DNA from: Weissella confusa
GTDB taxonomy: Bacteria; Bacillota; Bacilli; Lactobacillales; Lactobacillaceae
NCBI GenBank assembly: GCA_041871065.1
Contig: CP168942.1
Location: forward strand, 430,001-494,000
Direction of reading: 5' to 3'
DNA: 64,000 nucleotides
Shown here one piece after another: positions 20,265-23,407 of the stretch; position 1 is the first letter of the stretch; every line of letters starts with the position of its first letter. The position numbers and the translations under genes are program-made. The notes under the pieces are model-generated. The model did no database searches. It was not told the DNA's origin and saw nothing but the letters and a program-made list of their open reading frames with translations.

Positions 20265-20270
20265 TAACGA

Positions 20271-20305
20271 AAACAGCGAACTGCCTCGGCGGTTCGCTGT
20301 TTTTG
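20271..20305 (+). terminator. Terminator after rny
   Basis: AAACAGCGAAC and GTTCGCTGTTT pair perfectly around a short loop, followed by T5. Confidence 0.92.
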
Positions 20306-20364
20306 TTTAGACTGGGTTTTTAGAAATTTTGATAGATATTAAAAAATAAAAGTTAATGAAAGGG

Positions 20365-20393
20365 TTTACATTTGCTTTGAAACCGCTTACAAT
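20365..20393 (+). promoter_or_regulatory. Promoter of the sRNA / large RNA locus with an embedded cre site
   Basis: TTTACA (20365-20370) and TACAAT (20388-20393) are spaced by 17 nt. The cre TTGAAACCGCTTACA (20377-20391) matches WTGNAANCGNWNNCW exactly and covers the spacer and -10, so CcpA binding should repress this promoter. Confidence 0.8.
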
Positions 20394-20399
20394 AATAAA

Positions 20400-20721
20400 T
20401 GTGTTAAAGACACGGGGGAACGTAACATTTGGTAGACATTAATTAAAAGCGTAGAAGGGATGGGGCCCTAGTTGGTATCACGCCGTCATATCTCACTCTT
20501 GCTGCTTGAAAACATCGTTCAATATCTAAAACTAGCTGAAAACTCTTCTCCTTCAGAAAACACTAGAACGATATAATTTCTCTCCAGAAAATTCGAGCAG
20601 CAAGAGGGTGATGCGACGACTCTTTATCAACATCAACGCTTTCACAATCAAAAATATTTTGTGGGTCGTCAACCATAACCTAAAGCCATATTGCGGATAC
20701 GCAGTATGGCTTTTCTTTTTT
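20400..20721 (+). ncRNA. cre-controlled sRNA candidate of about 320 nt
   Basis: There is no ORF, but the region has its own promoter and a rho-independent terminator (20682-20721, AAGCCATA/TATGGCTT plus a T-rich tract). CTCTTGCTGC (20495-20504) pairs with GCAGCAAGAG, bringing together a helix of about 24 bp with GCCGTC/GACGAC below it. Inside, ATCGTTC pairs with GAACGAT, CTAG with CTAG, and CTGAA with TTCAG, exposing the loop ACTCTTCTCC. That loop is complementary to Shine-Dalgarno sequences, as in known regulatory sRNAs. I do not recognise a named family. Confidence 0.65.
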
Positions 20722-20726
20722 AGTTT

Positions 20727-21291
20727 GTGGTTAGTGTCCGTCCTGACGGCCGGAGTGCTTGGCCCCTTCTAGGGCACGCTAACACGTCCAGACCATGACC
20801 TGCAGGGAGCGGAGTCCACGCCATTGGCGCGTGCTCCTTTACCTCCCGTGGCTCTAAGTGGGGAACCCGCTAAGAGGCCACACCTGCGGGTCAAGGTCTA
20901 CACGTGTCTATACGCGTGGCGGGGCCAAGCACAGCAGCCGAGCAATACTCTATTTGTTCGATCTTCAACTGCCACAAGATGATAGGGTGAATAGTTTACC
21001 CATTTATTTTCCGGTGGATGTTGATCTCAGAAAGAATAGTACATCTTGGCTGCTGGTATGGGATTTGGTTGGGGTGGTGGTGCGGAGATCCTGCGATATT
21101 AGCCGGTGACCAAGCAAGGACAGGAGCACCAATTATCACTTAGCAGCAGTGGATTTCAAGCCGATAGGCGCGGAAATACGCTGAGGCTTAGGGAGAATGG
21201 GACTCCGTTGCCACCAGCTTATATTGTAGGACGGAGCACCGCCACCCCAACCAAATTCCATGCCTCGACGCAACGCGTCGACACTAACCAC
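20727..21291 (+). ncRNA. Large multi-domain structured RNA, ROOL/GOLLD-like candidate
   Basis: A 12-bp closing helix pairs 20727-20738 with 21280-21291. Domain I: 20755-20766 pairs perfectly with 20921-20932, then CACGC/GCGTG, ACACGT/ACGTGT, and AGACC-A-TGACC-T-GCAGG with 20883-20899, capped by the hairpins GGAGC..GCTCC and TGGCTCT..AGAGGCCA. Domain II is closed by AGCAGCC/GGCTGCT. Domain III has 29 continuous pairs between 21055-21083 and 21236-21264. The wobbles are G-U on the + strand and would be A-C on the other, so the + strand is the RNA. Size and closed multi-domain form recall ROOL RNAs; the family is inferred, not matched. It may be read through from the upstream promoter. Confidence 0.7.
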
Positions 21292-21367
21292 TACCAACCT
21301 TTTCATGACAGTTGCATAACACAATCCTGCAAGTTCACTGAAAGCACAGAAATAAGTCCTAGTCAAT

Positions 21368-21382
21368 AGTAAGCGGTTTCAT
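21368..21382 (-). promoter_or_regulatory. cre site, minus orientation
   Basis: The reverse complement ATGAAACCGCTTACT fits the cre consensus. Its core is identical to the cre at 20377, in inverted orientation, on the other side of the RNA locus. Confidence 0.65.
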
Positions 21383-21409
21383 AATTTGGTCATATTTAGC
21401 CCAAATTTT
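21383..21409 (+). terminator. Weak terminator candidate after the large RNA
   Basis: AATTTGG and CCAAATT form a 7-bp AT-rich stem followed by TT, directly before the PTS promoter. Confidence 0.35.
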
Positions 21410-21436
21410 GACTAAATGTAAACGCTAACATTAATT
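21408..21436 (+). promoter_or_regulatory. PTS promoter with an embedded cre site
   Basis: TTGACT (21408-21413), a 17-nt spacer and TTAATT (21431-21436). The cre ATGTAAACGCTAACA (21416-21430) fills the spacer and matches the consensus at all positions. Confidence 0.75.
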
Positions 21437-21478
21437 AAGTAATAAAGATGTTTAAGGATATATTTGAGGTGAAAGCTA

Positions 21479-23407
21479 ATGGCTCAAGATTTTAAGAAGC
21501 TTGCTAGCAGCGTGGTTGATGCTGTCGGCGGCGTAGGAAACGTTACTAATCTAACGCACTGCATGACGCGTTTGCGCTTTATTTTGAAAGATGAAGCAAA
21601 GGCTAGTGATGAAACTGTAAAGAACATCCCAGGTGTTATGGGATTGGTTAAGCAAGGTGGTCAATACCAAATCATTATTGGTAACAACGTGGCTGCTGCT
21701 TACAAGGAGATTTTGGCACTTGGTGTTGATGGTGGGGCTACGGTCGACGCCAGCGAACAACCAAAGCAAAAGTGGACGTTGAAGCGCGTTGGTATGACGA
21801 TTTTGGATGCCATTATCGGAACAATGACGCCTTTGATTCCAGCCATCATCGGTGGATCAATGGTTAGGTTGTTGGCAATGTTGTTGCTAATGACGGGTGT
21901 TGTTGGTGAAACAAACTCAACGTACGTTTTGTTGAACACGATTGGTGATGCGGCATTCTTCTTCTTGCCAATCTTGGTTGCTGTTTCAGCATCAAAGAAG
22001 TTTGGTACGAACACGTACTTGGCTGTTGCCATCGCAGGTTTGATGGTGCACCCAGTGTTCATGGACTTGATGGCTAAGGCTGCTGAAGGGCAAGCTGTAA
22101 CGTTGGCAATGTTGCCAATCACGTCAGTTAAGTACACGTACACGATTATTCCAGCTATTGTTATGTCATGGTTGCTACGTTACATCGAAGCTGGTGTTGA
22201 TCGCATCACGCCACTTGTAACGAAGAACTTCTTGAAGCCAATGTTGATCTTGTTGGTTGGTGCGGTTATCGCAATCTCAATCGTCGGACCTGCTGGTGTT
22301 TGGCTAGGTAACGGTATCTCAGCTGTTGTTTACGGTATCCACGGTAAGCTAGGTTGGTTGGCTGTTGCGATTGTTGGTGCTATCTGGCCTTTGTTGGTTA
22401 TGACGGGAATGCACCGTGTGTTCACGCCAACAATTGTGACGACTATTGCCGAGACTGGTTCAGAAGCCATGGTTATGCCTTCTGAAATCGGTGCCAACAT
22501 GTCACTTGGTGGTGTCTCATTGGCCGTTGCCTTTAAGACGAAGAACCGCGAATTGCGTCAAACTGCCTTGGCAGCTGCTTCATCAGCTTTGATTGCTGGT
22601 ATCACTGAGCCAGCCTTGTACGGTGTGGCAATTCGTTTGAAGCGACCAATGATTGCTTCAGTTATTACTGGATTTATCGCAGGTGCCGTGGCTGGTTTGG
22701 CCGGCTTGGCATCACACTCAATGGCTGCACCTGGTTTGTTCACGTCAGTTCAATTTATTGATAAGGACAACCCAACAAGCATTTTGTGGATTGCAGCAGT
22801 TATGGCAATCTCAGTTGTTGTTTCATTCGCATTGACGTTGATTCTTGGCTTCGAAGATATCCCAGTTGAGGATGATGAAGCTGATATGGTTACGCCAGCT
22901 AGCGTTAAGTTGATGGCTCCTATGAAGGGTGCTGTTATGGGCTTGCACGATGTTGCTGATGAAGTCTTCTCAAAGGGCTTGCTAGGTAAGGGTATGGCAA
23001 TCGAGCCAGTTGACGGTAAGGTTGTTTCACCAATTGCTGGAACGGTTACGACGGTCTTCCCAACGAAGCACGCAATCGGTTTGACTGATGATCACGGTAT
23101 GGAAGTTTTGATTCACGTTGGTTTGGACACGGTTTCACTAAACGGTGAGCCATTCGAAGCATTGGTTGCTGCTGGTGACCGCGTTGAAGTTGGAACTGAA
23201 TTGTTGCAAGCTGACTTGGACGCCATCAAGGCTGCCGGTTTGCCTACGACGACGGTTGTTGTTATTACGAACACAGACGAATTTAAGGACGTTACGCCAG
23301 TAGAGCCTGGTAACGTTTCATTCAAGGATCATGTCATGGAAGTCTTCCACCACGAGAAGGAAGACGATGCACAAACGGCTGTTGCAGCTGACGCATCATT
23401 GGCATAA
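21479..23407 (+). CDS. bglP: Beta-glucoside PTS transporter, EIIBCA fusion
   Basis: Takes up and phosphorylates beta-glucosides such as cellobiose, arbutin or salicin. The 642 residues run EIIB (1-90, phospho-Cys in LTHCMTRLRFIL near 28), EIIC (about 100-460, some ten membrane helices) and EIIA (about 480-630, phospho-His in LIHVGLDTVSLNGEPF). GAGGTG precedes ATG 21479. The adjacent 6-phospho-beta-glucosidase confirms the substrate class. No BglG-type antiterminator gene or RAT site was identified; control appears to be mainly by cre, though the long structured upstream region could add another layer. Confidence 0.9.
   Translation: MAQDFKKLASSVVDAVGGVGNVTNLTHCMTRLRFILKDEAKASDETVKNIPGVMGLVKQGGQYQIIIGNNVAAAYKEILALGVDGGATVDASEQPKQKWTLKRVGMTILDAIIGTMTPLIPAIIGGSMVRLLAMLLLMTGVVGETNSTYVLLNTIGDAAFFFLPILVAVSASKKFGTNTYLAVAIAGLMVHPVFMDLMAKAAEGQAVTLAMLPITSVKYTYTIIPAIVMSWLLRYIEAGVDRITPLVTKNFLKPMLILLVGAVIAISIVGPAGVWLGNGISAVVYGIHGKLGWLAVAIVGAIWPLLVMTGMHRVFTPTIVTTIAETGSEAMVMPSEIGANMSLGGVSLAVAFKTKNRELRQTALAAASSALIAGITEPALYGVAIRLKRPMIASVITGFIAGAVAGLAGLASHSMAAPGLFTSVQFIDKDNPTSILWIAAVMAISVVVSFALTLILGFEDIPVEDDEADMVTPASVKLMAPMKGAVMGLHDVADEVFSKGLLGKGMAIEPVDGKVVSPIAGTVTTVFPTKHAIGLTDDHGMEVLIHVGLDTVSLNGEPFEALVAAGDRVEVGTELLQADLDAIKAAGLPTTTVVVITNTDEFKDVTPVEPGNVSFKDHVMEVFHHEKEDDAQTAVAADASLA

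What the first reader, a model, noticed from the sequence alone, without database searches (positions are those of the whole stretch)
20727..21291. Large, closed, multi-domain structured RNA (ROOL/GOLLD-like candidate)
Seen: a 12-bp closing helix (20727-20738/21280-21291), a 178-nt arm with a 12-bp base and stacked helices above it, a middle domain closed by a 7-bp helix, and 29 continuous pairs between 21055-21083 and 21236-21264. All wobbles are G-U on the + strand and would be A-C on the minus strand, so selection acts on + strand RNA. Known: ROOL and GOLLD are very large RNAs of Lactobacillales and other bacteria. Inferred: this may be a member or a new relative. Its place beside cre-controlled promoters, not in a prophage, is notable.
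Basis: partly seen in the sequence, partly recalled or inferred. Interest (0 to 1): 0.9.

Follow-up and report, generated by a model that had tools for sequence, protein, structure and literature searches.

The report
Foldback repeat family targeting Weissella terminators
The folded stretch is one copy of a dispersed DNA repeat, found in a small group of Weissella bacteria, that sits just behind transcription terminators and is built from hairpin arms that keep their fold while their letters change; it does not look like a single large RNA gene of the ROOL/GOLLD kind.

Summary
The helices are real (MFE -306 kcal/mol, z -14), but the 565-nt stretch is one copy of a dispersed repeat with terminal inverted repeats: 11 places in the own genome, carriers 6 of 28 Weissella genomes; of 198 order genomes only the own matched. 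No Rfam match, so no ROOL or GOLLD. Of 25 copies (17 sites), 24 have a facing terminator T-run within 30 nt, against 110 of 600 random intergenic points. Sites are shared between strains while content is deleted, inverted or swapped; some sites are empty in relatives. The fold is nevertheless kept: arm 1 shows two-sided changes at 12 of 54 pairs. In 14 loci a diverged second arm lies inverted in the same element; the consensuses differ by full compensation at 17 pairs, and unpaired columns agree more than paired ones (55/70 against 66/107, p 0.02). Across whole copies no strand is consistently favoured (11 of 27 favour +), though arm 3 favours + in 16 of 16. Best reading: a new modular, terminator-associated MITE/BOX-like element. 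Mobiliser and transcription are unknown.

The parts
20727..20738 (+). left terminal inverted repeat GTGGTTAGTGTC (closing helix, 5' side)
   Evidence: exact inverted repeat with 21280-21291; the 10 exact matches in the own genome all lie at places of this family (one search read)
20737..20754 (+). mini-hairpin h1
   Evidence: MFE; seen at the 5' end of many copies and in some short remnants
20755..20932 (+). arm 1, 178 nt, three-way branched hairpin with conserved unpaired motifs
   Evidence: 31 distinct arms by blastn; two-sided changes at 12 of 54 pairs; inverted diverged homologue (arm 1') in type II copies
20933..21054 (+). arm 2, middle domain, most diverged arm (median 78% identity between copies)
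21055..21264 (+). arm 3 of type B with the 29-bp basal helix; other copies carry another arm (type C or inverted arm 1') in this slot
   Evidence: 16 distinct arms; alternative arms seen
21265..21281 (+). mini-hairpin h2
   Evidence: MFE; 3' end shared by many copies
21280..21291 (+). right terminal inverted repeat GACACTAACCAC
20682..20716 (+). intrinsic terminator whose T-run is the insertion neighbourhood of this copy (belongs to the upstream small-RNA-like gene, not to the element)
   Evidence: the same terminator runs straight into TTTCATGACAG in G013, where the element is absent

Best explanation
The stretch is one copy of a non-autonomous, modular inverted-repeat (foldback) element of the Weissella confusa group. 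Anatomy: a terminal inverted repeat closes a junction of two mini-hairpins and up to three large hairpin arms. In type II copies arms 1 and 3 are diverged inverted copies of one 179-nt folded module, so those elements are mirror-symmetric. Mechanism: copies arrive just behind the T-run of intrinsic terminators, where they do least harm (location and empty sites shown; a transposase acting in trans on the ends is inferred). Once in place they are long palindromes that lose arms, invert and exchange arms with other copies (variation at fixed sites shown; hairpin slippage and ectopic gene conversion inferred). The arms are kept foldable, with unpaired motifs shared between the two diverged arms, which suggests that the folded single strand is recognised or active, either as DNA during transposition or as RNA in read-through transcripts (inferred). 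The inverted arm pair of type II copies would present one sense arm whichever strand is used.
For: Dispersed copies on both strands: 20 blast pieces at 11 places of the own genome, this one included. Of 28 copies examined, 26 are not overlapped by a reading frame of 150 aa or more (the two exceptions, L029 and L030, had guessed ends), and 21 of the 27 with a neighbouring 3' end lie within 130 bp of it. Facing terminator: 25 of 25 within 90 nt and 24 of 25 within 30 nt (16 of 17 sites), against 132 of 500 letter-shuffled flank pairs (90 nt) and 110 of 600 random intergenic points of the window within 30 nt. Empty site at rny-bglP in G013, at the L038 site in G000, G041 and G023, and at the L013 site in G041 and G000. 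Of 9 fetched same-site pairs between two genomes of one species, 1 keeps over 95% identity, 1 keeps 85%, and 7 differ by deletion, inversion or replacement. At 8 of these sites the flanks compared directly are 95-100% identical; at the ninth both genomes match G013 at 97-99%. No Pfam family in four internal ORFs. Narrow spread: 6 of 28 genus genomes, 1 (own) of 198 order genomes. Fold kept: arm 1 has 98.2% paired cells, and 93 cells with both sides changed against 26.7 in shuffles. Arm 1 against inverted arm 1': 18 consensus pairs changed on both sides (17 stay paired) and 2 on one side; unpaired columns identical 55 of 70 against paired 66 of 107 (Fisher p 0.02).
Against: No transposase with these ends was found. 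Y1 transposases are absent from four of the six carriers (present in G021 and G023), and no reverse transcriptase was found in any of the six. Other transposase families were not searched. No target-site duplication could be fixed: flanks next to the ends differ and the empty sites may partly be old deletions. Many sites are shared by several strains, so recent jumping is little seen. Within arm 1 copies alone, unpaired columns are not better conserved than paired ones (30 of 65 against 62 of 108 invariant). Covariation of arms is more than a passive MITE needs. Arm 3 type B is not shown to be homologous to arm 1 (R1 scores 3.7 bits on the window's arm 3).
Confidence: 0.75

Rival explanations
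1. A single structured RNA gene, a ROOL/GOLLD member or relative, transcribed from the + strand.
For: Very stable closed multi-arm fold; the window copy favours + by 32 kcal/mol; arm 3 favours + in 16 of 16, with more G-T than A-C single mismatches (56 against 17 cells; 17 against 2 contexts).
Against: No Rfam match; many dispersed copies with swapped arms and both orientations; 16 of 27 copies favour the other strand; arm 1 occurs inverted in the same element in type II copies; no phage or plasmid match; promoter-like sites no more than in shuffles (2 against 2.1).
Confidence: 0.05
2. Each arm is a functional RNA module spread by the element: read-through transcripts from the upstream gene carry one sense arm, which acts as an mRNA 3'-end stabiliser or regulator.
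For: Compensatory stems and unpaired motifs shared by arm 1 and inverted arm 1'; deviations from Watson-Crick pairs in the arm's own frame lean to G-T (arm 1: 35 G-T against 13 A-C cells; arm 1': 11 against 2); position directly behind terminators; inverted arms give one sense arm on either strand in type II copies.
Against: Arms are lost or swapped between two genomes of one species at 7 of 9 compared sites, so no site seems to depend on a given arm; counted as distinct pair types the lean is small in arm 1 (13 G-T against 10 A-C), and the structure was derived on that strand; the strand-symmetric counts give 14 against 11 cells and 9 against 9 columns; transcription not tested.
Confidence: 0.2
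3. Pairing is kept by mutation, not selection: template switching in quasi-palindromes copies one arm side onto the other and creates paired changes.
For: Changes come in blocks within helices; near-perfect Watson-Crick pairing with few intermediates and no strand lean in the symmetric counts of arm 1; within arm 1 copies unpaired columns are not better conserved than paired ones.
Against: Between arm 1 and inverted arm 1' unpaired columns agree more than paired ones (55 of 70 against 66 of 107; p 0.02), which copying of stems alone does not explain; arm 2 has decayed instead.
Confidence: 0.25
4. A degenerate group IIC intron or other retroelement that targets terminators.
For: Group IIC introns are known to insert behind intrinsic terminators (recalled; one search gave listings only); size about that of a ribozyme core (recalled).
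Against: No group II match in Rfam; no reverse transcriptase in any of the six carriers; both orientations relative to the terminator; perfect terminal inverted repeats.
Confidence: 0.02

Closest known systems
BOX elements of Streptococcus pneumoniae (PMC3049150, abstract and passages seen)
   Same: modular intergenic repeats of 67-637 bp, tightly folded with the terminal inverted repeats paired to each other, modules present or absent, clade-restricted
   Different: larger arms; here inverted copies of one covarying 179-nt module, alternative arms in one slot, content swapped at fixed sites, and close association with terminators; sequences were not compared directly
Prokaryotic MITEs in general (review PMC10969869, passages seen)
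   Same: terminal inverted repeats, no coding capacity found, intergenic, stable folded transcripts predicted
   Different: no parent insertion sequence and no target-site duplication found; GC-rich arms (arm 1 about 0.6) where MITEs are typically AT-rich; covarying fold
REP/REPIN and BIME elements with RAYT transposases (listings seen; details recalled)
   Same: inverted pairs of a hairpin module, mosaic composites in intergenic DNA
   Different: module 179 nt instead of a short hairpin; the Y1 transposase family that includes RAYTs (recalled) is absent from four of six carriers
ROOL and GOLLD RNAs (PMC12286853 seen only in a search listing with the start of its abstract)
   Same: large closed multi-domain fold
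   Different: no covariance-model match; dispersed mosaic copies; no consistent strand over whole copies

Membership tests
ROOL / GOLLD RNA | match to the Rfam covariance model | tested here: not met
   window: no match at gathering score; none to these families among 9 matches at E up to 10 in 20265-21480; five other loci with copies, none
ROOL / GOLLD RNA | occurrence in phage/prophage or plasmid DNA (recalled as typical) | tested here: not met
   no blastn match in 50,697 phage records and 72,556 plasmid records
ROOL / GOLLD RNA | abundant discrete transcript | not testable with these tools
   no RNA-seq here
MITE-like mobile repeat | terminal inverted repeats | tested here: met
MITE-like mobile repeat | several dispersed copies without coding capacity | tested here: met
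   no Pfam match for four internal ORFs of the window copy
MITE-like mobile repeat | filled and empty sites in related genomes | tested here: met
   three sites; a fourth site (L026) showed only remnants elsewhere
MITE-like mobile repeat | target-site duplication | tested here: inconclusive
   alignment ends overlap by about 3 bases at two empty sites, but sequences next to the ends differ
MITE-like mobile repeat | autonomous relative with the same ends | tested here: inconclusive
   the 10 exact TIR matches in the own genome are this family; matches with up to 1 mismatch (20) do not exceed the control (31); relatives not searched for it
BOX element (S. pneumoniae) | boxA/boxB/boxC sequence | not tested
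   no direct sequence comparison was made
REP / REPIN | RAYT (Y1) transposase in the genome | tested here: not met
   PF01797 absent from G000, G041, G003 (66% complete) and G013; present in carriers G021 and G023 and in non-carrier G001
Group IIC intron | group II covariance-model match and reverse transcriptase | tested here: not met
   RNA; no RVT_1 in any of the six carriers

The most novel reading that the evidence does not exclude
The 179-nt arm is a new class of folded nucleic acid, selected for shape and for its unpaired motifs, and the element is a mirror-symmetric vehicle carrying two inverted copies of it to terminators. A still unknown enzyme would recognise the folded single strand (as integron or REP systems do, but with a far larger and branched fold), or the arm is a mobile RNA module.
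Probability: 0.3. Interest if true: 0.8.

Novelty: new variant of a known kind. Interest (0 to 1): 0.55.

Why it matters
If right, a bacterial repeat can maintain a 180-nt branched fold by compensatory change while being spread, inverted, deleted and swapped at fixed terminator sites. That gives a natural test bed for what keeps large hairpins folded (selection on RNA, selection on single-stranded DNA, or template switching) and for how a mobile element finds terminators. It also warns that 'large structured RNA' calls made by folding one sequence can be foldback repeats.

Tried and rejected
Rfam search of the window, the region and five other loci with copies: nothing relevant. Phage and plasmid records: no match. 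One viral-contig pattern hit (L131) lies in a contig filled by one long open reading frame and was set aside as chance. Of 30 stretches from the genome-contig pattern scan, 22 are titled Weissella confusa; the 8 from Mycobacterium, Paraburkholderia and Burkholderia were set aside as chance without follow-up. Hypermutation of arm 2 was considered because it is the most diverged arm and rejected because the one well-kept same-site pair has an identical arm 2. A link between strand preference and orientation to the neighbouring genes was looked for: sense copies 3 of 4 favour +, antisense 6 of 15; too few to say. A relation of arm 3 type B to arm 1 was tested with model R1: 3.7 bits, not shown. 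RNAalifold on the first arm-2 alignment gave no fold on the + strand; arm 2 was then folded copy by copy. Papers: searches listed no paper describing this repeat in Weissella; only listings were seen there, plus passages of PMC10969869 and PMC3049150. Rows dropped: L093 was in the arm 1' set (13 distinct) and left out (12 distinct, counted); 29 lower-scoring matches (63 bits and under, an arm read on its own opposite strand) were left out; copies with unclear ends were left out, so searches used 28, 27 and 25 copies; several ends used there were set by hand, and those of L029 and L030 overlap a reading frame. The alignment A1 for model R1 used 29 of the 31 arms with ends widened. The G003 state of the L038 site stayed unclear.

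Full report
CHECK OF THE OBSERVATION. The stretch 20727-21291 folds as described: inverted repeat ends, a 178-nt arm, a middle domain, and a third arm based on 29 uninterrupted pairs. MFE is -306.2 kcal/mol, z -14.3. The reverse strand is also extreme (-274.5, z -12.4). The window MFE has 16 G-U pairs and two A-C single mismatches. So the helices are real; the strand argument is suggestive for this copy only.

IT IS A REPEAT. A DNA search of the window's own genome (2.35 Mb, 3 contigs) gave 20 matching pieces at 11 places, the window's included, on both strands, from full length (90% and 86% identity) to remnants. Among 41 genomes (own, 24 of the same genus, 16 of the order) 5 matched, all of one genus. 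A same-species genome (G041) also has copies. Of 30 stretches found by an end pattern in a contig collection, 22 are titled Weissella confusa, so the host is taken to be of that group (inference). A covariance model of arm 1 (R1) found it in 6 of 28 genus genomes and in only the own genome of 198 order genomes (the latter with stricter filters that lose some weak matches). Four reading frames inside the window copy have no Pfam match.

ANATOMY AND MODULES. Terminal inverted repeat, mini-hairpins h1 and h2, arms 1, 2 and 3. Full copies are mostly 531-574 bp, with shorter forms (77-441 bp) and one of 1003 bp. The third slot differs between copies: type B (window; 16 distinct), type C (for example L004, L006, L033, L086) and an inverted, diverged homologue of arm 1 (arm 1') in type II copies, found by R1 on the opposite strand of the same element at 107-139 bits in 13 loci, plus a truncated one at 75 bits. 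Type II elements are therefore mirror-symmetric.

STRAND. By MFE, arm 1 favours the minus strand in 25 of 31 copies and arm 2 in 25 of 32 (one tie), while arm 3 type B favours plus in 16 of 16. Of 27 whole copies 11 favour plus. Strand-symmetric counts at shared pairs of arm 1 give 14 G-T against 11 A-C cells, 9 columns each; of arm 3, 4 against 2 cells. Single mismatches inside helices give 34 G-T against 19 A-C cells but 7 against 13 distinct contexts in arm 1, and 56 against 17 cells and 17 against 2 contexts in arm 3. So arm 3 looks plus-leaning, arms 1 and 2 do not, and a single + strand RNA under selection does not explain the family. Copies share ancestry, so these counts are not independent events.

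FOLD CONSERVATION. In 29 arm 1 sequences, 12 of 54 consensus pairs show changes on both sides; 98.2% of cells are paired, 93 cells have both sides changed against 26.7 in shuffles (0 of 500 as high), and sliding the partner by 1-3 columns gives at most 50% paired cells and at most 6 such cells. Two measures do not exceed the shuffles: pairs with two-sided change (12 against 10.6, reached by 91 of 500) and further pair types (26 against 28.2, reached by 498 of 500). Many changes are inherited together, so events are fewer than cells. Within these copies unpaired columns are not better conserved than paired ones (30 of 65 against 62 of 108 invariant). Comparing arm 1 (33 distinct) with inverted arm 1' (13 distinct, one truncated), 30 of 54 pairs have two-sided Watson-Crick changes in the joint set. 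The two consensuses differ on both sides at 18 pairs, of which 17 stay paired, on one side at 2, and agree at 33. Without the truncated row, unpaired consensus columns agree in 55 of 70 and paired ones in 66 of 107 (Fisher p 0.02). Deviations from Watson-Crick-majority pairs are 35 G-T against 13 A-C cells (13 against 10 types) in arm 1 and 11 against 2 (6 against 2 types) in arm 1'. The alignment was fitted to the model and the structure was derived on this strand, so these counts lean towards the structure and towards G-T. My reading: the fold, with some unpaired motifs, is under constraint; the molecule (RNA or single-stranded DNA) is not identified, and template switching is not excluded.

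LOCATION. Of 28 copies checked, reading frames of 80 aa or more flank 24 on both sides and 4 on one. A frame of 150 aa or more overlaps only L029 and L030, whose ends had been guessed. Of 27 with a neighbouring 3' end, 21 lie within 130 bp of it. In 25 copies (17 sites) with usable ends, an intrinsic-terminator-like hairpin with its T-run facing the element was found within 90 nt in 25 and within 30 nt in 24 (16 of 17 sites). Letter-shuffled flanks gave 132 of 500 (90 nt), and random intergenic points of the window 110 of 600 (30 nt) and 200 of 600 (90 nt). At rny-bglP the T-run belongs to the terminator of an upstream small-RNA-like gene.

DYNAMICS. The same sites are occupied in several genomes while the content changes. 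At rny-bglP: 565 bp type I (own), a 297-bp remainder with arm 3 (G041), 533 bp type II in the opposite orientation (G003), a remnant of about 50 bp (G023), and nothing in G013, where the terminator T-run runs into TTTCATGACAG. In G003 and G023 this small-RNA/bglP unit lies a few kb from rny. Between the own genome and G041, 1 of 9 compared sites is over 95% identical, 1 is 85%, and 7 differ strongly. At 8 of these sites the flanks compared directly are 95-100% identical (at L032 the match resumes 129 bases into the 3' flank); at the ninth both were compared with G013 (97-99%). Empty sites were also seen for the G013 copies L038 (absent in G000, G041, G023) and L013 (absent in G041 and G000, a small remnant in G003, other element sequence in G023). 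The L026 site holds only remnants in the genomes printed. A target duplication was not established. The window copy's left flank (TTTTTTAGTTT) differs from that of the other genomes at this site (ATTTTTGTCGT...) and resembles the flank of other copies (L002, L008, L017), which suggests replacement by recombination.

MOBILISER. The exact matches of the end sequence in the own genome belong to this family. The Y1 transposase family is missing from four of six carriers, and no reverse transcriptase was found in any carrier. So RAYT-type and retro-mobility are not supported; a DDE transposase acting in trans is an untested inference.

COMPARISON AND NOVELTY. The nearest described things are modular folded repeats such as BOX (PMC3049150, abstract and passages) and MITEs in general (PMC10969869, passages). 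This family differs by its inverted covarying 179-nt arms, alternative arms in one slot, terminator association and content swapping. The literature searches listed no paper on it; subscription journals are mostly not in that library.

VERDICT. A new variant of a known kind (modular inverted-repeat element), with an unexplained, well-maintained fold that deserves follow-up. Not a ROOL/GOLLD RNA by the tests made.

Noticed in passing
window 20365-20716 (+): A separate conserved small-RNA-like gene between rny and the element: promoter-like TTTACA-17-TACAAT overlapping a cre-like TGAAACCGCTTACA, invariant blocks in 8 aligned sequences (such as CTGAAAACTCTTCTCCTTCAG) and a terminator at 20682-20713. 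About 98% identical in G013, G003, G023 and G041 and 74-76% in five more distant genus members; no Rfam match. The CTTCTCC stretch could be an anti-Shine-Dalgarno seed (guess); the cre consensus is recalled.
   Followed up: partly
window 21370-21430 (+): Two cre-like sequences (consensus recalled) upstream of bglP (PTS EIIBCA) and a GH1 glycosidase; the element sits between the small-RNA-like gene and this promoter region.
   Followed up: no
L036 (G000:C1:819700-821400) and L039 (G013): Two arm-3B-like modules in inverted orientation beside each other without arm 1: a different composite of the same modules.
   Followed up: no
G013 and G023 (records): Two assemblies both titled Weissella confusa DSM 20196 have contig lengths equal to contigs of G013 and G023, which differ clearly in element content (50 against 11 R1 matches), so one title may be wrong.
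   Followed up: no
L018 (G023:C38): A 1003-bp copy with both ends; its interior was not analysed.
   Followed up: no
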